Below the pieces are notes generated by a model. The model worked only from the letters and a program-made list of their open reading frames with translations. It was not told the origin of the DNA and searched no databases. A stretch of DNA of 64,000 nt from Pelagomonas calceolata. Taxonomy: Eukaryota > Sar > Pelagophyceae > Pelagomonadales > Pelagomonadaceae. The position numbers were made by a program, and so were the translations under genes. Below are positions 7,602-32,765 of this stretch, piece after piece; position 1 is the stretch's first letter, and each line of letters opens with the position of its first letter. The stretch spans positions 1,116,001 through 1,180,000 of the forward strand of contig CAKKNE010000005.1 of the NCBI GenBank assembly GCA_918797485.1. The letters are read 5' to 3'.

Positions 7602-9059
7602 ATGCAGAACGCCGCCTACCCGCCGCAGTATAATGCGGGGGCCCAGCCCGTGCCCATGCCTGAACAGGTGGGCTACTACGCCGCGCCGGCGATGCTCGGC
7701 GGCCCCGTGCCCGGGAGACCGTCCTACGTCCTGCCACAAGCACCTTCCGTAGGAAGCTGGCCCCTGCCACCTGCTACAACCCAAATGGTCCCCGGCATGG
7801 CGCCGCCGCCCGCTCCAGCAAACGAAGAGCCGACGAAGGTCGTGCGAGCGAAGGGCGTGGCACGAGCGCGCTGGAACCGCGACGAGGAGGAACGGCTCAA
7901 AAAACTCGTCGGGGAGCACGGCGCGAAGCGCTCCTGGCAGAAGATCTCCGAGAAGCTCGGGAGCGGCCGCACGGCGTCGGGCGTCGAGCAGCACTGGCAG
8001 GTCATGACGGGCCAGCGGCAGCGGAACGGCGCTACGGTTCCCAAGGAGAACCAGGCGCAGCATCCCAACGCTCTACTTGCTGTAGGACAGAAAGATGGTC
8101 AGCAGACCGAAAGAAGGACCTCTGCGAGGTGGACGCAGGACGAAGAAAACAGGTTGCGAGAAGCTGTTTCTGAATTGGGCAAGGGCAAGTGGACCCTGGT
8201 CGCTGACAGATTGGGCACTGGAAGGTCACCGTCGGCCGTGGAGCAGCACTGGCAGATCGTGACTGGCCAAAGAAAGTCGAAGGGAAGGCACGCTGCCGCT
8301 CATCTACAGCATCGCGCGCGGACGATGGGCGCGTCGGCGCCGGGCGCGCAAGCATTTGTCTTGGCGGGTGGCTCCGTGACACCACACTTACCGGGTCTAG
8401 CGCCACCGGGCGAGCAGCCGAGAGAAAAAGGTGGCGCTCGGTGGACGCCCGACGAAGAGCACGAGCTCAAACGACTCATCGAGGAGGTGGGTGCGAAGGG
8501 CCAGTGGAGGGTGATTGCTGATAGACTACGAAGCGGTAGATCTCCAGGAGCGGTAGAACAACATTGGCAGATCATGACCGGGGGCCGGAAAGGGAGTAGT
8601 GCGACGCGGCTCGCCCAGCAACGACTTGAGGTCGACGACGGCGACGGCGACTTGAAGCGGTCTCGGGCGACGAAGACGCGCGCGGTCGCTCATAGGTGGA
8701 CTCCTCAAGAAGAAGCGCAATTATCAGCTTTAGTGGAAGAATTGGGTCCTCGCGGCAAGTGGGGCCAGATCGCCGAGAAGTTGGCTTCCGGTCGCACGTC
8801 GTCCGGCGTCGAGCAGCACTGGAAGATCATGCACGGCGCGCACCACGGCGCCAAGAAGGCGCGCCTCGCGCCGGCGGCGCCGCCGACCTTGGTCGCCGCG
8901 GCGGCGCCTCCACCTAGTATGCTGGGCCAGGCGCGGCCCATTTCGCACGGCCAGGTGCCGGGCCAGTGGGTGCCGGGCCTGCCGGGCCAGCCGTACCAGT
9001 ACCAGGTGGTGACGGACGCGGACGGGCGGCCCGTCCAGGCCTCGGGGCAGATGATGTAA
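7602..9059 (+). CDS. Four-repeat Myb/SANT-domain protein
   Basis: The 485-residue protein carries four Myb/SANT repeats starting near residues 88, 175, 279 and 364. Each has the W-x-x-(D/Q)EE start (for example ARWTQDEENRL) and ends with a shared third helix, SxVEQHW(Q/K)IM. Only the first Trp of each repeat plus a WK/WR..IA core is kept, which is typical of Myb-like rather than classical c-Myb repeats. The third-helix sequence suggests DNA binding. The flanks are Pro/Gly/Gln-rich, as in transcription factors. The ATG at 7602 (MQNAAYPPQY) is first in frame. The stop is only 34 bp from that of the convergent histone-fold gene. Confidence 0.85.
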   Translation: MQNAAYPPQYNAGAQPVPMPEQVGYYAAPAMLGGPVPGRPSYVLPQAPSVGSWPLPPATTQMVPGMAPPPAPANEEPTKVVRAKGVARARWNRDEEERLKKLVGEHGAKRSWQKISEKLGSGRTASGVEQHWQVMTGQRQRNGATVPKENQAQHPNALLAVGQKDGQQTERRTSARWTQDEENRLREAVSELGKGKWTLVADRLGTGRSPSAVEQHWQIVTGQRKSKGRHAAAHLQHRARTMGASAPGAQAFVLAGGSVTPHLPGLAPPGEQPREKGGARWTPDEEHELKRLIEEVGAKGQWRVIADRLRSGRSPGAVEQHWQIMTGGRKGSSATRLAQQRLEVDDGDGDLKRSRATKTRAVAHRWTPQEEAQLSALVEELGPRGKWGQIAEKLASGRTSSGVEQHWKIMHGAHHGAKKARLAPAAPPTLVAAAAPPPSMLGQARPISHGQVPGQWVPGLPGQPYQYQVVTDADGRPVQASGQMM

Positions 9060-9093: not shown

Positions 9094-11325
9094 TCAGTGA
9101 TACCCAGTGCGTGGACCAAGTGGACCAAACCCCGCCAAATTGTCGCCGCTTGAGTCGATGACGGACAGGACATGCGGGACCAGGACGGGTCCACGGCTGC
9201 CGCCCGGCAGATCAAACTGCGGCGACACGCGTCGCGCCCGATGAAACAACCAGGCGAGGCGATGCGCGAAGACGCGTGACATGAGTTCGTTCGCTTCGGT
9301 ATCGAACGTCACTGTTGTTGGCGGGTATGGGAGTACCGGGCCCACAAATTCCTCGGCGAGTTCAATCACAGCACCCATCTCGTTGGGACCGAGAAGAGGC
9401 TCAGCGTACGGCAGCGCGGCGCGCAACGCCGCGGCCGCGTCCGCGGCAGCGTCGAACGGTCGCACATACAACACTGGCAACCGTTTCTGCGTCCTTTCCA
9501 GCAACGTAACAACCGCGCGCGCGACGTTGGAGAAGGTGAGCGGACCGGAATACGCCGCGACCGAAATTTCGCGCTGGACCTCCTCCATAAGTAACTCGTC
9601 TGTGCCTATGGAGTCCTCAGCAACTTGACGGTAAACGATCGTCCGCGGTTCGCGGTTGGATGTCTCGTGCAGATGAAAACCTCTCGCTAGCACTGCGATC
9701 TCCACGCCCCACTTCTTGACGAGCTCGCCGACGAGGCCTTCGACTTCCGGGGCCCAGTGTGTAAATCCCGCGCGGCGCGCGGCAGTCTCCGTCAAAGTCC
9801 TTTGGGCCCGTGCCGTGAGATCAGCGCCGCCCATCCCCTGGCGCAGGGGGCGCTGGCGCGCCGGGAGCACGGTCGAGAGCTTCGAAGGCGCGGCAGGCGG
9901 ATCGCGGTCAACATAAACGCAGCCCGTCCAGCGTTCCCCTGCGTGCCTCTCTGCGACGCGGACCGCGTCCAGGTCGACCACGGGCTGCACTGAGATCACT
10001 TCGGCTCTCCCTGCATACGTGACGAGCCAGAGTAGGCACTCTCTACCGCAACTTGGGCAGGGGCACCCGACCGCGCCGCACCACCGCTCGGGGACGGGAT
10101 CCTGAGGCCCTTGCGTAGCAGACTTCGTCAGCCGGAGCCCGAAGTAGCGGTCGTCGATGCCTTCTCCTTCGCCCCGGTCCGTCGCAAACTGCTCCATATC
10201 AAGGACCCCGTCACGCAGCATACCCAGCACGTCCCGGGAACACCGCTTGTAGTAGTCGGCGGCCATGTCGCTGAGAGGCTGACGGTCGCTGAAAACAGCG
10301 TAATCAAGTCCCGCGAGCGCGCGAAGTACCACGCTCTCCGTCAGTTCGTATCCCGGCGCTTCAGTCCAGCGCGTCCGTAGCGTATGCTCCCACGCGTAAC
10401 GTATGTCCGACGCATCCGAATCTGAGTCATCCGTCATCCAAGGTTCCCGCTCGCTCTCGTCGGACTCGGCCTCGCTCTCGTCGTCAGAGGAAAGCGGCGC
10501 CGCGCAAGACGTGTGGACGAGGGCCACGAGCCGTTCAACTCTCAAATCGGACTCCGCGGCTTCACGCAGCAACGGGTGCCCGACGCCGCGGGCCTTCGCG
10601 ATGACAGTAGATAGAAAAGCGCACAATGCCGAGGACGCCGCGTCGAGCGCGCCTGGCGCGAGGTGTGTGATGCCCGCGCGGCTCGCGATCCACCGCATCG
10701 ATCGACGGATGGCGCACTGCGGCGACGAACCGTCGAGCGGAGCCGCCTCGCACCACGTCATCGGTCGGCGGCGCCACACGACCGCGGGCGCCGTCTGCGC
10801 CTCTTCCGAATTCGTAACATCGGGCGGCGCGGGATGCGTCGATGCCGTCGACGCCGAAACCAGCCCGGCGCAGGCGCAGCCCGCTTGCGGTCGGCCCGTC
10901 CCCGCAACTCTATCAAAACCACATATCTTGATCGCGTCCTCGATGTCGCACGGCCACACGACCGTCGCATTGCGGCAGTCACATGCGACCATCAAAGCCG
11001 AGTTAAAAACTCCCGTCAGGAACTTCTCTGCGGCGTTCCGCAGCACGGTGGCCGCGCGCTCCGTGATCCGCGGCCGTAGGAACGACTCCACAACTTTGCG
11101 GGCATCAGCGCTCAGCAGTCGCACGAGCGGCGCCGACCACGCCTGCACACCGCAGGTGCCCACGAGTAGCGCATCAAACGGGCCGGCAAAAAACGAGCGG
11201 TGGTTGCTTTCTATCTGGGCTCTACGAACATTCCTCAACTGCATAGTTACCAGCGCATCCAGCGGCGGGCATCGCACCCTTAACCCCTCCCACTTCTCTT
11301 CTTGACTTGGCGTGCTGCTCTCCAT
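9094..11325 (-). CDS. Single-chain histone-fold protein, H3-H4-H4-H3 order
   Basis: The 743-residue protein contains four histone-like folds. Residues 28-138 resemble H3: LRNVRRAQ matches LREIRRYQ, PFDALL matches PFQRLV, NAAEKFLTGVF matches EASEAYLVALF, and PCDIEDAIKI matches PKDIQLARRI. Residues 203-272 resemble H4: AIRRSMRWIASRAGITHL and AFLSTVIAKA match AIRRLARRGGVKRI and VFLENVIRDA. Residues 506-570 are a second H4-like copy (ARRAGFTHWAPEVEGLV). Residues 598-722 are a second H3-like copy (RTQKRLPVLYVRPFDAA, then an alpha2-like helix). Between the pairs lies an acidic tract (278-304) and a CPCPSCGREC cluster (421-430). The start is the first ATG (11325); an upstream in-frame GTG exists. 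It probably compacts or marks DNA. A 66-nt in-frame intron (10795-10860) is possible. Confidence 0.72.
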   Translation of the reverse strand: MESSTPSQEEKWEGLRVRCPPLDALVTMQLRNVRRAQIESNHRSFFAGPFDALLVGTCGVQAWSAPLVRLLSADARKVVESFLRPRITERAATVLRNAAEKFLTGVFNSALMVACDCRNATVVWPCDIEDAIKICGFDRVAGTGRPQAGCACAGLVSASTASTHPAPPDVTNSEEAQTAPAVVWRRRPMTWCEAAPLDGSSPQCAIRRSMRWIASRAGITHLAPGALDAASSALCAFLSTVIAKARGVGHPLLREAAESDLRVERLVALVHTSCAAPLSSDDESEAESDESEREPWMTDDSDSDASDIRYAWEHTLRTRWTEAPGYELTESVVLRALAGLDYAVFSDRQPLSDMAADYYKRCSRDVLGMLRDGVLDMEQFATDRGEGEGIDDRYFGLRLTKSATQGPQDPVPERWCGAVGCPCPSCGRECLLWLVTYAGRAEVISVQPVVDLDAVRVAERHAGERWTGCVYVDRDPPAAPSKLSTVLPARQRPLRQGMGGADLTARAQRTLTETAARRAGFTHWAPEVEGLVGELVKKWGVEIAVLARGFHLHETSNREPRTIVYRQVAEDSIGTDELLMEEVQREISVAAYSGPLTFSNVARAVVTLLERTQKRLPVLYVRPFDAAADAAAALRAALPYAEPLLGPNEMGAVIELAEEFVGPVLPYPPTTVTFDTEANELMSRVFAHRLAWLFHRARRVSPQFDLPGGSRGPVLVPHVLSVIDSSGDNLAGFGPLGPRTGYH

Positions 11326-25169: not shown

Positions 25170-28100
25170 ATGGACCGTGGCGCTTCGCCACGAACGGGAG
25201 ATGTCGGGAGCGGGCCCGGCGGGACCAAAGATGCGCACAAGAAGGCCTTGGGGCCCCAAGACGGCGGCGGCGGTCCGTCGACGGTAATTGCTTTGGGTGG
25301 AAACGGGTCGGGCTCGTCATATCCGACGAAGCCCGTCGATCTAGATGCTGATACGAAGAAACGTTACCGTCCACGCCATTTCAAACGTGTGAAAGAACGC
25401 CGCAACCGACGTAAGCGTGATCAAGATGAACGCCTTTTCATCAAAGGTCTGAAGGCGAAGGCTACCAACGAAGAGCCGAATCGGAAAGAACGTCGCGAGG
25501 GTGTTCAGGGTTTTAAACCGCCCAAAAAAACAGTAAAATTGAGCGTTCCGCCGCCCAAGACCGTGATCGTAGATGATGGCTCAAACAAGTTTGGCTCTCT
25601 TCGTGTGGAAAGCGAAGTCCCCTCTCTTATTTCTAAGACCACAACCATCTCTACCACTACATCTGTCGAGGAAGACGTTTATTGGTCGCCATGCGAATCT
25701 ACCGATAAACCAGTTATTTCCTACAAAGTAGAAGATCTTGATCCAAAGGATGAACGTGACTCTAAGATTTGCAACGTCGTGCTGCGCGGTAATCACTATA
25801 TTAATAAACAAGAGCGTCGCACGACCTTCGTGGGGGCTCTGAAGACGCACTTCGACGCGCATAAGTCTGGTGATGACGGCCTGTCGAAGAAAGAGGTGAA
25901 CGCCGCGCTCAAGTCCTTTGCCAAGAAAGATAGAACGGGCAAGTTCCGGAAGCTCGAGGAGCTCGAGGCGCTGTTTGGAGACATGGATCTGAACGGCGCG
26001 GGCCGCGTGTCCTACGACGAGCTGACGGACTTCATCGACGACATCGACGCCGACGACATCGGCGCCGGCCGCAATCACCGCGGGAAGGGTGCCGGTGGTA
26101 TCAAAACGATTTACCTAAAAGAAGATCGTGTTCCTAAATTAGATTACATTTACCGTGAAGACCTACAAGTGACTTATTCTCTAAAATTAGGACGGTTGAA
26201 ACTGCGGTTGAAACTGCGATATATAATTCAGCAATTGGCCTTCCGTCGTCAACACAAGGTGTCATTGAAGGTGACCCACCTGATGGCTGAGACCTTCAAA
26301 CACAACTTGATGTTCCTAAACAACATTCCTAACAAAGATGTGGTGGTGTCTCATGGGCTTCTGGCGCTGCCTTCTACTTCCGCCTTCGACGGCGCGGCGA
26401 CTGCTGCGCCCGGCGAGGCGTCCTTCGAGGGCCAGCACGCGGCACTTGCGGCGCTGGGCCAGGCCGTGCTCGCGGCGCTGGGCGTGGCGTTCTTCCAGGG
26501 CTCGACTCCTATCGATGTCGTCGGGGGCTACGTTTTCTCGCTGGACGTCCTCGGCGACGCGCTATCTCTGGACGTGCTGACGAACTCAAATGTGCTTCAC
26601 AAGACGGGCTTCATGGGCGCGGCGCCCACGGTGGTCTTCTTGGGTGGTTCGGAGGGACTCAACGCCCTCTTGCTGGACGCGTCGGCGGCCGCGGCGCTCG
26701 ACGGCGTGTTCAAGGGCCTCTTCGGCGTCGCTGCGCTTCGCGGGCAACCGGTAGTCGTGGGCGCGGCGCCGGACGTGCCATGGTATAATTCTTCGGACGG
26801 CCTAGACGTCTTCTCGGGAAACCTCTGCCAGCGGGCTGGCGGCGCGCGGCTCGTGGGCGCGTTGACGGATTCATTAGATGGGCTACGGACGGCGAGCCTC
26901 GCGGTGGCGGTCGCGGACGCGGCGTGCGTCCAGGGCTCGGCTTCGCTCGACGTCGCGTTGTGTCAGAACTCGCCGCGGGCCGTCGCGCGGCTCGTGGGCG
27001 CGCTCACGGATTCACTAGATGGGCTACGGAAGGCGGGCCTCGCGGCGGCGGTCGCGGACGCGGCGTGCGTCCAGGGCTCGGCTTCGCTCGACGTCGCGTT
27101 GTGTCAGAACTCGCCGCGGGCCGTCGCGCGGCTCGTGGGCGCGTTGACGGATTCATTAGATGGGCTACGGAAGGCGGGCCTCGCGGCGGCGGTCGCGGAC
27201 GCGGCGTGCGTCCAGGGCTCGGCTTCGCTCGACGTCGCGTTGTGTCAGAACTCGCCGCGGGCCGTCGCGCGGCTCGTGGGCGCGTTGACGGATTCACTAG
27301 ATGGGCTACGGAAGGCGGGCCTCGCGGCGGCGGTCGCGGACGCGGCGTGCGTCCAGGACCCGGAGGCAGTCTTGTCCGACAAACCCTTGTTAGCGGAGGC
27401 CATGGAGGAAGATCGACTCGATAGTATGAAAGAGCAAAAAGTGATACAAATATTGGTCATGACCGCCTCGGGCGCGATGCCCTCTGTTTTTGTGAAGCCG
27501 TGGGCGACTGTCGGTGACCTCATGCTCGTGATCCAGCAGATGATGGATGTTCCCCTGTCAAAATATCAGCATCTGCAGTCCATCGGCGGCAGACCGATGC
27601 AAAACGCAGCTTTGCTCCAGCACTACGACATCCAGAATAATTCTACTGTGGTTTTGTCGGAGCCCTGGCCTGGGCATCTTCTAGGAGGCTCGTTGTTGTC
27701 GTTGAAAGAGCTCATTGACAAGGGCAGCCTAAACGTGGGCGACATCATCGTCTTCAGGGAACACAATCACCAAGAGGAAGGCGAACTGCTCGAGAACGGT
27801 TGGATCAGGCACGAGGGCACAGTCTACAAGTCGGCGAGTGCGTTCGTGGGGGCGATGCGCGGGAAACCTTCAAGCGGATATGACTTTCTCTATACGGCTA
27901 CCGGTACGCCGATCCAGTCGCTCCGCAGCGACCCCTCCGACAGTAGCTCGAACGGCGACGACTTGCGCAGCGACTCGAACAGCGACGACGAGGCGCCCCC
28001 GCAGCCGCCTGGGGACCAGCAGCTCGCGGGCCGGCGGCGGCGCCAGCCAACCGAGCGCTTTGATCATCAAACGCAAGTGGGCCAGTATTATGTGAAGCGT

Positions 28101-31100
28101 GGGTCCGCTGTGGGTGGCGCAGACGACGGTGACGACGACGTGGTCATGGAGGACGATGACGAGCAGTCCCAGCTGCAACAAGCTCTGAAAATGTCCATGC
28201 AACCTATGGGAGAGGGATTTGTGGAGGAGACGACCGCGCCGACGCTGCCAGCGACGCCGGGCGCGGCGCCGGACCACGCGCGGCCCGGCGGCGTACCGCC
28301 ACCACCTTCTCTCCCACCGGCGAAGCGCTCGCTCCAACCCGCTTCGCCGACCTCCGGGAATGTCAAAGTGTTCTTCGACGACAACTTCCTGCCTAGCGAG
28401 TCCGTTTTACAGGGACTGAGGAACGCGGGCGTCAGGATAGTGGGTCGGCCGCGCGACGCTACGCATATCGTGTGCGAGGAGCCGCTACGACTTTCGCTTA
28501 CTTTTACCGCTGCCAGCTGCGTCGTGGACCATGCAGTGACGCACGAGTGGGTAGAGGCTACCATCGAGGCCGGTCGCCCCCTAGAGGCGACGAACTACGT
28601 TGTGGACAGCCACGAGCTCGAACAAGATGTTGGATTTAATCTCGCCGATAATTTGAGGCGGAACCGTGAGGCGGTGGACCGCTCGGAATTACGCCTGCTT
28701 CAGGACAAGGTCGTGTGTGTAGATCCGGACTTTCAGTGGCGACGTGATCTATTGGATGATTTGCAGGAGATGATCGACTGCTCTGACGCGATGCGGCTCG
28801 AATTTAGTGATGTGGTCGACTTAGACGGCACCCTACCGCAAGAAGGAGCCATCATCATCTGTAAAGACGACAGTGGGCTAGTAGATGAGGCGATTGTGGA
28901 CGATATCGCGTCCCCAACCACTGTAGTAAAGTACTGGGATCTCTGTGAGTACCTTCTGAGGAGGGCGTACCCCTGGGACGAGGCTACTGGGGATGCGCAA
29001 GCCCCGGGCCAGCCACCGGCGCATGCTCCTCCTAGAGATGTAGAGGACTGGCGCTCTTTGATGGGCGCTACGGTTGTAACACCTGAAGGCAGCAATGGGC
29101 GCTGTGTTGCGCTCCACGTGGACTCATCCTCCGAAGAAGATCGGGAGCTCAGCGAATTAAGATGGGAGGCAGGAGGTTTCATAGAAGAAGGTTTGCTTCG
29201 TAGAAATGTTGGATTCGTCGAGTTCGAGGCCGTGTCGCCCAGCGATGGCTTGCCCCACGTCTTGCGCTGGGATGGTGCACCGAAGCCTAATGTGAGGGGG
29301 ACGTTCGACGTGGTTTTCGCCGACGGCACTCCAGCGACCGTCGATCGTATTATGACCTGGCTCAGACCTGACCAGTGGAGCTCTTTATCTCGGTTGCCGG
29401 ATGGGTGCTGGTGCCGCCCTCTAGCGAGGGAGCCCCAGGATGAATGGGGACGGATCGTGGGGACCCTGAGGTCGCCCGATCCAGGTCTACTTTATGAGGT
29501 TCGCATGCAAAACGAGGAACGATCTATTAGTGTGATGGAGAGCTCACTGGTTCCCATCGTCCTGGTCCGAGATACTACCGGGCATTTGTCGCCCTACGCC
29601 GTGTCGGCGCTACGGCGCCCCGCTTCGCAAGGGGCTGATGGCGGGGACGTCCAAACTGGCGGAGATCCGAGTCCGCCACCGGCTCCACCTGCTCCGCGGG
29701 AGGCACTGCCAGAGGAAGCTGGCAATTGGCCAAAAGCTTTCATTGAACTGCTGCGCGAGAAGAAGGTGAAGTGCAAATTTAAGAGTCCGAATCCCAAGCG
29801 CGGAGCAAGTGCTGCTCGCTATGATGGGTATATGCGCGCCACCAATATCGGGGATTATTACGACATCTTCCGCGGCAACATGAGTGATCTGCGGAACGAT
29901 ATCACTAAGGGCTACTGCCAGCTCGACAAATCGGAGCGCGACGACGCGTGGCTCGAGTACTTGGAGTCGGGCGAGGACTTACAGTCGAAGGCCGAGAAGC
30001 CGAAGGCCAAGAAGCCGAAGGCCAAGCCCGCCGCTAAATCGGGCGCCGGCGCCGAGGACACTACTGATGAGGACATGTTTGGCACAAATACGACCCCTCC
30101 GGCAGAGCCCCTCGTACTGCCACCTGACTGGAACGAGAGCAAGCAGCGGGCCAAGGACCCTGAGTTGGAAGCAGCGGTGTGTGCGCTGGGCGCCGCCCTC
30201 ACGGGCAAGACGAGCTTTACTAAGGAATGGGACCTACTCTTGAAGCATCGCTGTTATTGTTTTTATATTCACGAGGACGATCCAGCTAATAAAGCAGTGA
30301 AGAACCTCGAAGTGCCGATCGGTTGGCCGTCATACAAGGAGTTCAGCAAGAGCCCCAAGAAGAATAAACCTTCCAGCCTGAGGTTGTTGCGCCAATACCT
30401 CAAGTATGCACTGCAACTCGCGAAGGAAGGCGACAAATACTGCCTAGACGACGAGCAGAGCGAAAGCAATCGCTTTTGGCCGGAGGAGCGGGAGAAATTT
30501 CACGGGGCCATGGCGACGCTCAACATAAATCGGAGTGGGCGCGGCTTATCGAGGGAGGACTGCCGCCGGATCGCGGAGCACCTACCCAACAAAACACCTC
30601 AGCAGGTCCATGCGCACGCTTGTTCTTACTTCAGCTCCTTCGATGCGGAAGCGCAAGCTATTGAAAAGCTCACTAGTACTGGCGACTCCTACGTGAAGTC
30701 CGTCTTGGGCACGGACACCATCAACACGTCTGAGCTCCTCTTCTGCATCATCTCCACAGGCCGGTGGATCGATGCCAAATTCATTGAATTGAGACTGTCA
30801 AAAGCTGGCCTAGAAGCGTCACAAATACTGTGGGTTGTGGGCACCCCGGAAGAAGTGGCCAAGTACAAGTCGCAATGCTCTGGTGAAGTAGTAGTAGGAG
30901 GCGGTCTCTCTGCGTCGAGAAACAAAGCTCTAGAAACGGCCCGAGCCCGCAACCGCGTGTGCGTGCAACTGAGGGACAGTGTTTGGAAGTGCGTGGTAAT
31001 ACAGGAGGGGCCTGAGGAGGGCGGGTCGCTAGCTGATTTCTACAACAAGAACGGTCTGTGGAAAGAGCCACCGAGTCTGGAGGCGGCCAATACCACGGGC

Positions 31101-32765
31101 TCGAAGAACGTGGAGGTGACACTCGTGGCCGCGGCCTTGTTGTTGCACGATTTGATGAAAGCGAGGGACAAACGCTTGGCGGGCTGCTTCCCTGTCCCGA
31201 ACAAGGGCTTCGCCGCAAGCAAGGAACCGGTGCAGCAGCGGGAACTTGTTGATGAAAGGCTGTTGGTAATCGACCCGGAGGGCACCAAATTTGACGAATC
31301 ATTGAATTTCAGGGAGGTCGACGAGTTCACGGCGCAGCACATCCACAAGTACGACGGGATTTATAGATCAAACCGCGTGCTGTGTGTGGGACAAGGCCGC
31401 AAGGGGAAGACCTGGGTCACCCCGGAAGGACCTAGTGAAGAGGATAAACAGAACGCCATCGATTCACTGCTCAATAAGCATCGCGACTTGTTCCGTGAGA
31501 GGATCATCCACAATAGAACAACACGCCCGCACGATAGGTATGTGTTGAGTTGGGAACAGGACGCCTCTTCGGAGCCGAAGGACCAAAATGAGACCATGGA
31601 GGACGTGCAGCCCGGCGAGCAGACCGTACTGTCTACACAACTACCGTTCGACGCCGGGTCTTTGGCGGCCCTGGAATGTCCGTCGGTACCTATGCGAGAA
31701 CTGACCCCAGAGGACAAATTTATACGCTTCGCGTTTCTGGCGCGCGAGACGGTCGAGTGTGAGAACGGTAGAGAAAGCAAGGCTGCCCTGATTGTACCAC
31801 ACGAAGCGGGGAAAGAACACGAACCCCATAAGGGTCAGCTTCGCGTGCTCGCTCAGTTAGTGAAAGGTAGGTTCACCCACAAGGTGAAGTTCGCATCACG
31901 TGCTTCTAAAAAGCTTACTATTTTGGGCGAGGACGATTATGGCTTCGAATTTAAACCGACGGAGGCGCCTGCGATGTACAGAGATACGGAGTGCATTTTT
32001 GTGCTGGATCCCAGGGCCAAGGGTAGTTCTTTCATACCCCGATGTGCCCATGCGAAAGGTTTTGTCACACTCGCCCCTGGATGTGCGTGCGGCTTAGAGT
32101 GCCCTGGTTCTCAAATGGAGATCCACCAGCACCATATCACTGCGCATGAACGCGACTGCCTCTTGGCCCCATCCACACACTGCATCAACAGTGGGTTGCT
32201 CGCCAGCGGCATTTGGGGAAGGCAACGACCCTTACACGAGCAGCTCAACAAGCTCTGGGGGATGATCAAGCATCAACATTCCATTAACGATAAAACCTTT
32301 GTCCATCTAGCCGAGATCTCGGTTCCAGTTGAAACTAACCAAAAGTCTGGCGAAGCATATCCTGGAAATGCTACTCTAATGAATGCATTCAAACCAGGCG
32401 GCGAATTATCTAAGCACTTGAAAGTAGCTGATCCTACTCGTGTACATGAGCTGCTGCCAGAGGGTCTGCCCGACGACGTCGCGACGGGGGGCACGTACTA
32501 CGAACTCAAGAAGGATAGTGAAAAATACTTCCCGTTCTGGGGCCGGGACACGCTTCTCTATTACGAATCGAAAAAAACGCTGTCCGTTGTTTATGGGAAA
32601 TGCCCCATAACAGGAGTGGGCGGACGAAAGACGAAAAGAACCACTCGGCTCCTTGTGCTACACCACATCACAGTCGATAAAAATAAGGAATGCTTTGTTG
32701 GCTTCATCAACGACAATGTGAACAGGGGCCTCGGCAGCACCGACGCCCCGGATCCGTTTGCCTAG
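25170..32765 (+). CDS. Giant multidomain chromatin-type protein: EF-hands, UBL, RAMA, UIM, BRCT, SANT, putative TAGT glycosyltransferase
   Basis: One uninterrupted frame encodes 2531 residues. In order: a basic N-terminus; EF-hand pair (about 225-290, second loop DLNGAGRVSYDE); Ala/Leu-rich region with 47-residue tandem repeats (559-729); ubiquitin-like domain (about 755-832); RAMA domain (about 838-920, LKELIDKGSLNVGDIIVF and GWIRHEGTVYKSASAF); UIM-like helix (about 996-1011, SQLQQALKMSMQ); BRCT (about 1063-1147) and a weaker second one; Tudor-like strand region near 1297; SANT-like domain (about 1769-1815, ending HAHACSYF). At about 1854-2130 is a putative TET/JBP-associated glycosyltransferase-like domain (GLSASRNKALETARAR, FDESLNFREVDEFTAQHI). 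The last 400 residues are unrecognised. RAMA plus TAGT suggests recognition and glycosylation of modified DNA bases; this is inference. An internal ATG at 27402 could start a shorter, 1787-residue form. Confidence 0.72.
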   Translation: MDRGASPRTGDVGSGPGGTKDAHKKALGPQDGGGGPSTVIALGGNGSGSSYPTKPVDLDADTKKRYRPRHFKRVKERRNRRKRDQDERLFIKGLKAKATNEEPNRKERREGVQGFKPPKKTVKLSVPPPKTVIVDDGSNKFGSLRVESEVPSLISKTTTISTTTSVEEDVYWSPCESTDKPVISYKVEDLDPKDERDSKICNVVLRGNHYINKQERRTTFVGALKTHFDAHKSGDDGLSKKEVNAALKSFAKKDRTGKFRKLEELEALFGDMDLNGAGRVSYDELTDFIDDIDADDIGAGRNHRGKGAGGIKTIYLKEDRVPKLDYIYREDLQVTYSLKLGRLKLRLKLRYIIQQLAFRRQHKVSLKVTHLMAETFKHNLMFLNNIPNKDVVVSHGLLALPSTSAFDGAATAAPGEASFEGQHAALAALGQAVLAALGVAFFQGSTPIDVVGGYVFSLDVLGDALSLDVLTNSNVLHKTGFMGAAPTVVFLGGSEGLNALLLDASAAAALDGVFKGLFGVAALRGQPVVVGAAPDVPWYNSSDGLDVFSGNLCQRAGGARLVGALTDSLDGLRTASLAVAVADAACVQGSASLDVALCQNSPRAVARLVGALTDSLDGLRKAGLAAAVADAACVQGSASLDVALCQNSPRAVARLVGALTDSLDGLRKAGLAAAVADAACVQGSASLDVALCQNSPRAVARLVGALTDSLDGLRKAGLAAAVADAACVQDPEAVLSDKPLLAEAMEEDRLDSMKEQKVIQILVMTASGAMPSVFVKPWATVGDLMLVIQQMMDVPLSKYQHLQSIGGRPMQNAALLQHYDIQNNSTVVLSEPWPGHLLGGSLLSLKELIDKGSLNVGDIIVFREHNHQEEGELLENGWIRHEGTVYKSASAFVGAMRGKPSSGYDFLYTATGTPIQSLRSDPSDSSSNGDDLRSDSNSDDEAPPQPPGDQQLAGRRRRQPTERFDHQTQVGQYYVKRGSAVGGADDGDDDVVMEDDDEQSQLQQALKMSMQPMGEGFVEETTAPTLPATPGAAPDHARPGGVPPPPSLPPAKRSLQPASPTSGNVKVFFDDNFLPSESVLQGLRNAGVRIVGRPRDATHIVCEEPLRLSLTFTAASCVVDHAVTHEWVEATIEAGRPLEATNYVVDSHELEQDVGFNLADNLRRNREAVDRSELRLLQDKVVCVDPDFQWRRDLLDDLQEMIDCSDAMRLEFSDVVDLDGTLPQEGAIIICKDDSGLVDEAIVDDIASPTTVVKYWDLCEYLLRRAYPWDEATGDAQAPGQPPAHAPPRDVEDWRSLMGATVVTPEGSNGRCVALHVDSSSEEDRELSELRWEAGGFIEEGLLRRNVGFVEFEAVSPSDGLPHVLRWDGAPKPNVRGTFDVVFADGTPATVDRIMTWLRPDQWSSLSRLPDGCWCRPLAREPQDEWGRIVGTLRSPDPGLLYEVRMQNEERSISVMESSLVPIVLVRDTTGHLSPYAVSALRRPASQGADGGDVQTGGDPSPPPAPPAPREALPEEAGNWPKAFIELLREKKVKCKFKSPNPKRGASAARYDGYMRATNIGDYYDIFRGNMSDLRNDITKGYCQLDKSERDDAWLEYLESGEDLQSKAEKPKAKKPKAKPAAKSGAGAEDTTDEDMFGTNTTPPAEPLVLPPDWNESKQRAKDPELEAAVCALGAALTGKTSFTKEWDLLLKHRCYCFYIHEDDPANKAVKNLEVPIGWPSYKEFSKSPKKNKPSSLRLLRQYLKYALQLAKEGDKYCLDDEQSESNRFWPEEREKFHGAMATLNINRSGRGLSREDCRRIAEHLPNKTPQQVHAHACSYFSSFDAEAQAIEKLTSTGDSYVKSVLGTDTINTSELLFCIISTGRWIDAKFIELRLSKAGLEASQILWVVGTPEEVAKYKSQCSGEVVVGGGLSASRNKALETARARNRVCVQLRDSVWKCVVIQEGPEEGGSLADFYNKNGLWKEPPSLEAANTTGSKNVEVTLVAAALLLHDLMKARDKRLAGCFPVPNKGFAASKEPVQQRELVDERLLVIDPEGTKFDESLNFREVDEFTAQHIHKYDGIYRSNRVLCVGQGRKGKTWVTPEGPSEEDKQNAIDSLLNKHRDLFRERIIHNRTTRPHDRYVLSWEQDASSEPKDQNETMEDVQPGEQTVLSTQLPFDAGSLAALECPSVPMRELTPEDKFIRFAFLARETVECENGRESKAALIVPHEAGKEHEPHKGQLRVLAQLVKGRFTHKVKFASRASKKLTILGEDDYGFEFKPTEAPAMYRDTECIFVLDPRAKGSSFIPRCAHAKGFVTLAPGCACGLECPGSQMEIHQHHITAHERDCLLAPSTHCINSGLLASGIWGRQRPLHEQLNKLWGMIKHQHSINDKTFVHLAEISVPVETNQKSGEAYPGNATLMNAFKPGGELSKHLKVADPTRVHELLPEGLPDDVATGGTYYELKKDSEKYFPFWGRDTLLYYESKKTLSVVYGKCPITGVGGRKTKRTTRLLVLHHITVDKNKECFVGFINDNVNRGLGSTDAPDPFA
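26844..27356 (+). repeat. Coding tandem repeat, 141-bp unit, about 3.6 copies
   Basis: Units begin at about 26844, 26985, 27126 and 27267, each encoding 47 residues starting ARLVGALTDSLDGLRKAGLA. Copies are nearly identical at DNA level, with the first one the most divergent, so the array is recent. Reading frame is preserved because the unit is a multiple of three. Confidence 0.85.

What the first reader, a model, noticed from the sequence alone, without database searches (positions are those of the whole stretch)
9094..11325. One gene encodes four histone folds in mirror order H3-H4-H4-H3
The H3 and H4 signatures match at residue level in the first pair (LRNVRRAQ, PFDALL, AEKFLTGVF, PCDIEDAI; AIRRSMRW, RAGITHLAP, AFLSTVI). 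They recur in reverse order in the second pair (RAGFTHWAP; RTQKRL...RPFDAA). The RAG-(I/F)-TH-(L/W)-AP motif shared by both H4 copies shows internal duplication. A single chain could hold a whole (H3-H4)2 tetramer. Histone doublets and longer multiplets are known from some giant viruses, but a mirror-order quadruplet with an acidic linker and CPCPSC cluster in a host-looking locus is new to me. Acquisition from a virus or a nuclear lineage-specific invention are both possible.
Basis: partly seen in the sequence, partly recalled or inferred. Interest (0 to 1): 0.92.

Follow-up and report, generated by a model that had tools for sequence, protein, structure and literature searches.

The report
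Algal protein with fused H3-H4-like folds
A gene in a tiny ocean alga encodes a protein in which an H3-like and, probably, an H4-like histone domain are fused in one chain; three other genes in the same genome pair such a unit with an F-box-like segment, but the claimed mirror-image four-histone layout is not established.

Summary
The ORF is real: 9094-11325, minus strand, 743 aa, uninterrupted. The genome fits the alga Pelagomonas calceolata. Residues 63-140 are H3-like beyond doubt (0 of 1000 shuffles). Residues 203-275 are probably H4-like (1 of 1000 with an H4 profile, weaker with others; pooled with three relatives, 39 of 39 PDB hits are named H4, but best E is 0.26). Residues 500-573 may be a third, H4-like fold (3 of 1000 with one profile, 11-263 with five others). 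No coherent H3-like fold was found in the last 170 residues. So H3-H4 is supported, the mirrored H4-H3 is not. New here: three more single-frame genes in this genome carry F-box-like, H3-like, H4-like and acidic parts, one of them 48 kb away. The fold pair is nearly neutral, lacks H4's basic loop 1 and has Asp at H3 positions 113 and 126, so a regulatory adaptor or histone mimic is likelier than a nucleosome subunit. Single-sequence AlphaFold models were uninformative (pLDDT about 38).

The parts
9094..11325 (-). Whole coding frame, 743 aa, no intron needed, stop at 9094-9096
   Evidence: open frame 776 codons; GC by codon position 0.676/0.528/0.720, same pattern as long neighbouring frames
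11215..11250 (-). H3 alphaN-like motif TMQLRNVRRAQ (in residues 26-37), weak
   Evidence: 23 of 2000 shuffles for residues 1-62, 92 of 2000 for residues 1-90
10906..11139 (-). H3-like histone fold, residues 63-140
   Evidence: 0 of 500, 0 of 1000 and 0 of 1000 shuffles; profile with three relatives hits histone H3 in PDB, E 1.9e-7
10501..10719 (-). Probable H4-like histone fold, residues 203-275
   Evidence: 1 of 1000 (H4 profile), 7, 8, 43 of 1000 (other H4-bearing profiles), 37 (all folds), 417 (archaeal); 3 of 1000; 39 of 39 PDB hits of the pooled profile are named H4, best E 0.26
10399..10491 (-). Acidic stretch, residues 279-309; the three relatives have an acidic stretch after their H4-like part too
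   Evidence: residues 276-315: net charge -13
9889..10398 (-). Middle region, residues 310-479, no known family; Cys cluster C416-C430 (CGAVGCPCPSCGREC) at 10036-10080
   Evidence: (no Pfam family at E<=10)
9607..9828 (-). Possible third histone fold, H4-like, residues 500-573, holds RAGFTHWAP
   Evidence: 3 of 1000 (relatives' H4 parts), 11 (those plus H4), 25 (archaeal plus H4), 37 (all folds), 102 (archaeal), 263 (H4 alone)
9097..9606 (-). C-terminal helical region, residues 574-743; proposed second H3 fold NOT supported
   Evidence: residues 635-740: 1 (H3 plus relatives), 6 (relatives' H4), 19 (relatives' H3), 30 (all folds), 363 (H3) of 1000, with the same helix put at different places of the fold; no Pfam family

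Best explanation
A nuclear gene of the alga Pelagomonas calceolata encodes a protein whose N-terminal part is an H3-like fold followed by a probable H4-like fold, which should pack into one intramolecular H3-H4 pseudodimer, then an acidic stretch, an unknown Cys-bearing region and perhaps one more histone fold. It most likely derives from the cell's own core histones. I think it works as a regulatory adaptor or histone mimic: the pseudodimer docks onto partners of H3-H4 (chaperones, assembly or transcription factors) and does not build nucleosomes. Three relatives carry an F-box-like segment in front of the same pair, which suggests that they bring such partners to an SCF ubiquitin ligase; the window gene is an F-box-less, extended cousin. 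Shown: H3-like fold, acidic stretch, the three other genes with their H3-like parts. Probable: H4-like folds and hence the order. Inferred: pseudodimer, docking partners, ligase link, common origin of the window gene and the relatives.
For: H3-like fold: Pfam E 0.0056, 0 of 1000 shuffles twice, and of H3 type (H2A and H2B profiles 215 and 364 of 1000). H4-like partner. The same order H3-like, H4-like, acidic in three other single-frame genes, with F-box-like matches E 0.012 (P0002), 0.00062 (P0003), 0.00036 (P0004), all below the curated cut-off. The relatives differ as coding genes do: differences by codon position 191/154/230 (P0002/P0004) and 209/172/264 (P0002/P0003). Fold pair near neutral: H3-like +2, H4-like +4; canonical cores +8 and +10. 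By alignment (H3/H4 numbering recalled) H4 K44-R45 is T-H in Q2 and Q3 and non-basic in the relatives, and H3 H113 and L126 are both D in the window protein. Canonical H3, H4, H2A and H2B exist elsewhere in the genome.
Against: No structure supports any fold: single-sequence models have mean pLDDT 37.7 and 38.1, and Foldseek gives no match with E<=0.001. The H4-like assignment never reaches database-wide significance; profile A3 of the relatives' H4 parts found one unrelated chain, and two non-histone chains outrank H4 with profile A5. Against canonical H4 the relatives themselves score 9, 2 and 63 of 300 shuffles, the second by aligning to its H3-like part. The window protein is not nearer to the relatives than to canonical H3 (15, 22, 23% against 32%), and Smith-Waterman of whole relatives against its N half is not above shuffles (235, 238, 129 of 300), so common descent of the fusion is unproven. 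P0004's H3 part is matched by Pfam as a TAF12-type fold (TFIID_20kDa, E 0.0047), not as Histone. No expression or binding data were available.
Confidence: 0.5

Rival explanations
1. Mirror quadruplet: four folds in order H3-H4-H4-H3 form a single-chain pseudo-tetramer that binds DNA or chaperones.
For: Weak H4-like signal at 500-573 (3 of 1000 with one profile); P0002 against the C half 4 of 300 shuffles, through the stretch that ends in ARRAGF; 1 of 1000 for 635-740 with the H3-plus-relatives profile, in a register that does not fit the fold; low-confidence helices at 647-661 and 676-700.
Against: No coherent fourth fold; C half against canonical H4 and H3 360 and 352 of 1000; none of 47 Foldseek hits of the C half is named a histone; positions of H3 H113 and L126 are Asp; whole protein net -16.
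Confidence: 0.12
2. Viral capture: the fused folds come from a giant-virus histone multiplet integrated into the algal genome.
For: Doublets, triplets and quadruplets are known from Nucleocytoviricota (PMC9145170 passages; PMC11222145 section 6).
Against: The 60 best PDB rows shown are cellular-type H3 by name (59 of 60, 60 of 60); neighbouring frames look like host genes by eye; 2 of 2 viral scans with family queries found nothing, but the 2 scans with canonical H3 and H4 were empty as well, so this is weak.
Confidence: 0.12
3. Only the H3-like fold is real; the H4-like and later similarities are chance in a helical, Ala/Arg-rich protein.
For: Outside residues 63-140 every signal is weak; one search made 66 comparisons, so a few low counts are expected; the archaeal histone HMfB aligned to Q2, Q3 and 570-743 no better than 766, 720 and 746 of 2000 shuffles.
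Against: The H4 signal lies where an H4 partner is expected, Smith-Waterman agrees (3 of 1000), and the profile pooled with the relatives hits only H4 (39 of 39).
Confidence: 0.2
4. A TAF-, SAGA- or CENP-like complex subunit: histone folds as assembly modules of a transcription or kinetochore complex rather than core-histone derivatives.
For: Pfam gives TFIID_20kDa E 0.0047 for P0004 and TFIID-31kDa E 0.065 for P0003; one of six hits of profile A5 is TAF10 (E 1.4).
Against: The window protein and P0002 match H3 specifically.
Confidence: 0.15

Closest known systems
Nucleocytoviricota histone doublets and quadruplets (Marseilleviridae and relatives)
   Same: Several core-histone-type folds in one chain, H3 next to H4
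   Different: Cellular locus; near-neutral folds; acidic stretch and unknown regions; only two folds supported; the known quadruplets hold all four core histones (PMC11222145, passages, section 6)
Eukaryotic double histone fold proteins: ABTB2 (Cca3), Sos, SPT proteins
   Same: Cellular proteins with two histone folds in one chain; ABTB2 joins them to ankyrin repeats and a BTB domain
   Different: Cca3S folds resemble H2B and H2A (PMC13088155, section 3, part 1 of 2 read); here the folds resemble H3 and probably H4, and the relatives carry an F-box-like segment
Core histones H3 and H4 of the same genome
   Same: H3-like part 22 of 68 columns (32%) identical to canonical H3
   Different: No basic tail, basic loop 1 of H4 lost, bundle positions of H3 changed, fused in one chain
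Three relatives in the same genome: P0002 at C6:3422098-3423540, P0004 at C6:3423593-3425008, P0003 at C5:1075380-1076726
   Same: H3-like, H4-like, acidic stretch in that order, single frames
   Different: F-box-like segment in front, SHOCT-like tail on P0002 and P0004; residues 296-743 of the window protein find only themselves in the genome at E<=10

Membership tests
Histone H3 | H3-type histone fold recognisable in sequence | tested here: met
   Pfam score 17.4 bits stays below the curated 26.4
Histone H3 | Basic N-terminal tail with modifiable lysines | tested here: not met
   residues 1-62 hold 1 Lys, net charge 0
Histone H3 | H3-H3' four-helix bundle residues (C110, H113, L126, I130; numbering recalled) | tested here: not met
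   alignment: V, D, D, I
Histone H4 | H4-type histone fold recognisable in sequence | tested here: inconclusive
   1 of 1000 with one profile, 7, 8, 43 of 1000 with others; pooled profile hits only H4 but best E 0.26
Histone H4 | Basic loop 1 (K44-R45; numbering recalled) | tested here: not met
   T-H in Q2 and Q3
Viral-type histone multiplet | Two or more core-histone folds in one uninterrupted frame | tested here: inconclusive
   one frame, H3-like sure, H4-like probable only
Viral-type histone multiplet | Encoded by a virus | tested here: not met
   contig of 5.29 Mb in an alga-sized assembly, neighbours host-like by eye
H3-H4-H4-H3 quadruplet | Four histone folds in mirror order | tested here: not met
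   third fold weak, fourth without coherent support
Eukaryotic double histone fold protein | Two folds assemble intramolecularly into a pseudodimer | tested here: inconclusive
   single-sequence models at pLDDT about 38 say nothing

The most novel reading that the evidence does not exclude
A nuclear eukaryotic genome holds a small family of genuine H3-H4 fusion genes, coupled to F-box-like adaptors, and one member has doubled the module into a single-chain H3-H4-H4-H3 pseudo-tetramer: fused core-histone derivatives in a living cell, and a natural single-chain tetramer.
Probability: 0.12. Interest if true: 0.9.

Novelty: new variant of a known kind. Interest (0 to 1): 0.6.

Why it matters
[quoted passage not shown] Here are four uninterrupted single frames in one chromosome-scale algal assembly, so mis-predicted splicing cannot explain the fusion. 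If the H4 half holds, the histone-doublet state is reachable in a living eukaryote from H3 and H4, and there it was put to another use than packaging. Searches for an F-box together with histone folds and for fused eukaryotic histones showed no report of such a protein in the titles and abstract starts listed; of the papers in those listings I looked into four only (PMC9145170, PMC11222145, PMC10919886, PMC13088155), and the library holds open-licence papers only.

Tried and rejected
Rejected: PFDALL as H3 helix 1; PLVRLL aligns better. Rejected: a hidden F-box in residues 1-72 (no Pfam family; Smith-Waterman of residues 1-62 against the relatives' F-box segments 1295, 1703 and 1863 of 2000 shuffles). 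Rejected as relatives after reading their frames: C5:4228628 (E 0.60, one stop) and C1:4585045 (E 0.75). Not counted as evidence: a pattern written after seeing the alphaN motif, absent from 200000 shuffles. Led nowhere: AlphaFold2 on both halves; Foldseek (for the N half 4 of 6 hits are nucleosome entries, E 3.0-5.7, behind a spliceosome chain at 2.3); PHROGs; NCBIfam (nothing histone for the window protein, archaeal histone E 0.014 and 0.021 for P0003 and P0004, far below cut-off); profiles A3 and A4 against PDB (no histone among 1 and 12 hits); viral scans, whose controls with canonical H3 and H4 were empty too. For the archaeal profile 80 loci were fetched, 77 gave a usable frame and 41 were kept after an 85% identity cut.

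Full report
What is there. The ORF at 9094-11325 (minus strand) is 743 aa from its ATG and uninterrupted; GC by codon position (0.676/0.528/0.720) has the same order as in long neighbouring frames, unlike the 300-aa frame on the other strand (0.558/0.645/0.741). The window is G000:C5:1116001-1180000 of a 32,445,274-base assembly in 8 contigs. Pelagomonas calceolata RCC100 has six nuclear contigs of 32.4 Mb plus a plastid and a mitochondrial contig (PMC9481584, passages seen), so I take the genome to be that alga; no tool named it. The next long frames lie about 195 bases upstream of the ATG and 34 bases downstream of the stop, so there is little room for extra exons.

First fold. Residues 63-140 are H3-like. 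Pfam Histone matches at E 0.0056, under its cut-off. An H3 profile scores 17.6 bits and 0 of 1000 shuffles reach it; Smith-Waterman gives 66, 0 of 1000. The profile of the window protein with three relatives finds 197 PDB sequences at E<=10; of the best 60 shown, 59 are named histone H3 and one 'Histone domain-containing protein', E from 1.9e-7. H2A and H2B profiles give nothing here (215 and 364 of 1000). An alphaN-like motif lies in 26-37 (23 of 2000 shuffles for residues 1-62, 92 of 2000 for 1-90).

Second fold. Residues 203-275 are probably H4-like. In segment 195-280, shuffles reaching the score number 1 (canonical H4), 7 (archaeal plus H4), 8 (H4 plus relatives), 37 (all folds), 43 (relatives' H4 alone) and 417 (archaeal alone) of 1000; Smith-Waterman with H4 3 of 1000, with archaeal HMfB 766 of 2000. 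An earlier run on residues 1-285 gave 4 (H4), 28 (H4 plus relatives) and 156 (relatives) of 500. Pooled with the relatives' H4 parts, 39 of 39 PDB hits at E<=10 are named histone H4, the best at E 0.26. The hits are close kin, so this is one observation, not 39. Shorter profiles gave no support or little (H4 third of six hits, E 0.42, behind two unrelated chains at 0.015 and 0.16).

The second half. Residues 500-573 hold RAGFTHWAP where H4-like folds have the end of helix 1 and loop 1. Counts for segment 490-580 are 3 (relatives' H4), 11 (H4 plus relatives), 25 (archaeal plus H4), 37 (all folds), 102 (archaeal) and 263 (H4 alone) of 1000. That is suggestive only. For 635-740 the counts are 1 (H3 plus relatives), 6 (relatives' H4), 19 (relatives' H3), 30 (all folds), 34 (H4 plus relatives), 148 (H4), 288 (archaeal), 363 (H3), 278 and 220 (H2A, H2B) and no score for archaeal plus H4; the low ones put the same helix on different parts of the fold. 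For 570-640 the lowest is 49 (H4). The middle region 300-480, which serves as a control, has a lowest count of 25. One search made 66 comparisons (11 profiles by 6 segments), so single counts of this size are not strong. Canonical H4 and H3 against the C half give 360 and 352 of 1000 by Smith-Waterman. The internal RAG repeat scores no better than 122 of 1000 shuffles, half against half.

Relatives. A scan of the genome with Pfam Histone listed 33 places at E<=0.1; the window gene was 32nd, and the 31st and 33rd lie in long frames with an H3-like, then an H4-like part and an acidic stretch. A third such frame lies in tandem with one of them. They are P0002 at C6:3422098-3423540, P0004 at C6:3423593-3425008 and P0003 at C5:1075380-1076726, the last 48 kb from the window gene. 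All three have an F-box-like segment near the start (E 0.012, 0.00036 and 0.00062, below cut-off); P0002 and P0004 end in a SHOCT-like tail, below cut-off. Pfam calls the H3 part Histone in P0002 (E 0.00027) and P0003 (E 0.016), and TFIID_20kDa in P0004 (E 0.0047), all below cut-off. Against canonical H3, Smith-Waterman gives P0002 89 (0 of 300), P0003 61 (0 of 300), P0004 37 (19 of 300); against canonical H4 9, 2 and 63 of 300, where P0003's alignment lies in its H3-like part. Codon-position differences fit selection on the protein. A FastTree of 20 short rows puts the H3-like parts with H3, and Q2, Q3 and the relatives' H4 parts together beside H4, with supports from 0.33 to 0.94; it is too short to weigh much, and Q3 and Q2 were put in by my own choice. 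Common descent of the fusion is open: the three relatives are nearer to one another in the H3 part (29-34%) than to canonical H3 (20-28%), while the window protein is nearer to canonical H3 (32%) than to them (15-23%); whole relatives against its N half score 235, 238 and 129 of 300, against its C half 4, 75 and 267 of 300.

How it may work. The fold pair is near neutral and the chain net acidic. H4's basic loop 1 is gone in all four proteins; H3 R83 is kept in the window protein and P0004; H113 and L126 of H3 are Asp in the window protein, while the three relatives keep H113 and two of three keep L126 (numbering recalled). H3 C110E L126A I130A is described as giving constitutive H3-H4 dimers (PMC5404915, passage seen). 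I infer a self-contained H3-H4 pseudodimer that does not tetramerise through the usual bundle and is unlikely to wrap DNA: a mimic that binds partners of H3-H4, in the relatives tied to an F-box-like segment. ABTB2, a double histone fold protein with a BTB domain, is a parallel (PMC13088155, section 3, part 1 of 2); that BTB and F-box proteins both serve cullin ligases is recalled.

Origin and novelty. Neighbouring frames look like host genes by eye, and the PDB rows shown are cellular-type H3. Viral scans found nothing with family queries, but also nothing with canonical H3 and H4, so they carry little weight. Fused histones are known from giant viruses and double histone folds from some eukaryotic regulators; an H3-H4-type pair in single frames of a eukaryote, with an F-box-like segment in the relatives, is a new variant as far as the searches named above show. 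Models failed (pLDDT 37.7 and 38.1), so all statements on folds rest on sequence.

Noticed in passing
G000:C6:3422098-3425008 (L032) and G000:C5:1075380-1076726 (L033): Three genes with F-box-like, H3-like, H4-like and acidic parts in one frame; they became part of the main argument.
   Followed up: yes
G000:C2:459019, C6:2055628, C3:4628522, C5:3109666: A SHOCT-like C-terminal tag like that of P0002 and P0004 recurs at four other places in this genome; the two frames read look otherwise unrelated.
   Followed up: partly
G000:C6:3469498-3470053 (L008, L015): A divergent H3 split over two reading frames, perhaps a centromere-type H3 with an intron (by eye).
   Followed up: no
window 7602-9059 +: 485-aa frame with four repeats that look like Myb/SANT repeats, convergent with the histone-fold gene (by eye, no family search).
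   Followed up: no
window 25170-32765 +: 2531-aa frame with near-identical repeats in the part printed (LVGALTDSLDGLRKAGLAAAVADAACVQGSASLDVALCQNSPRAVAR).
   Followed up: no
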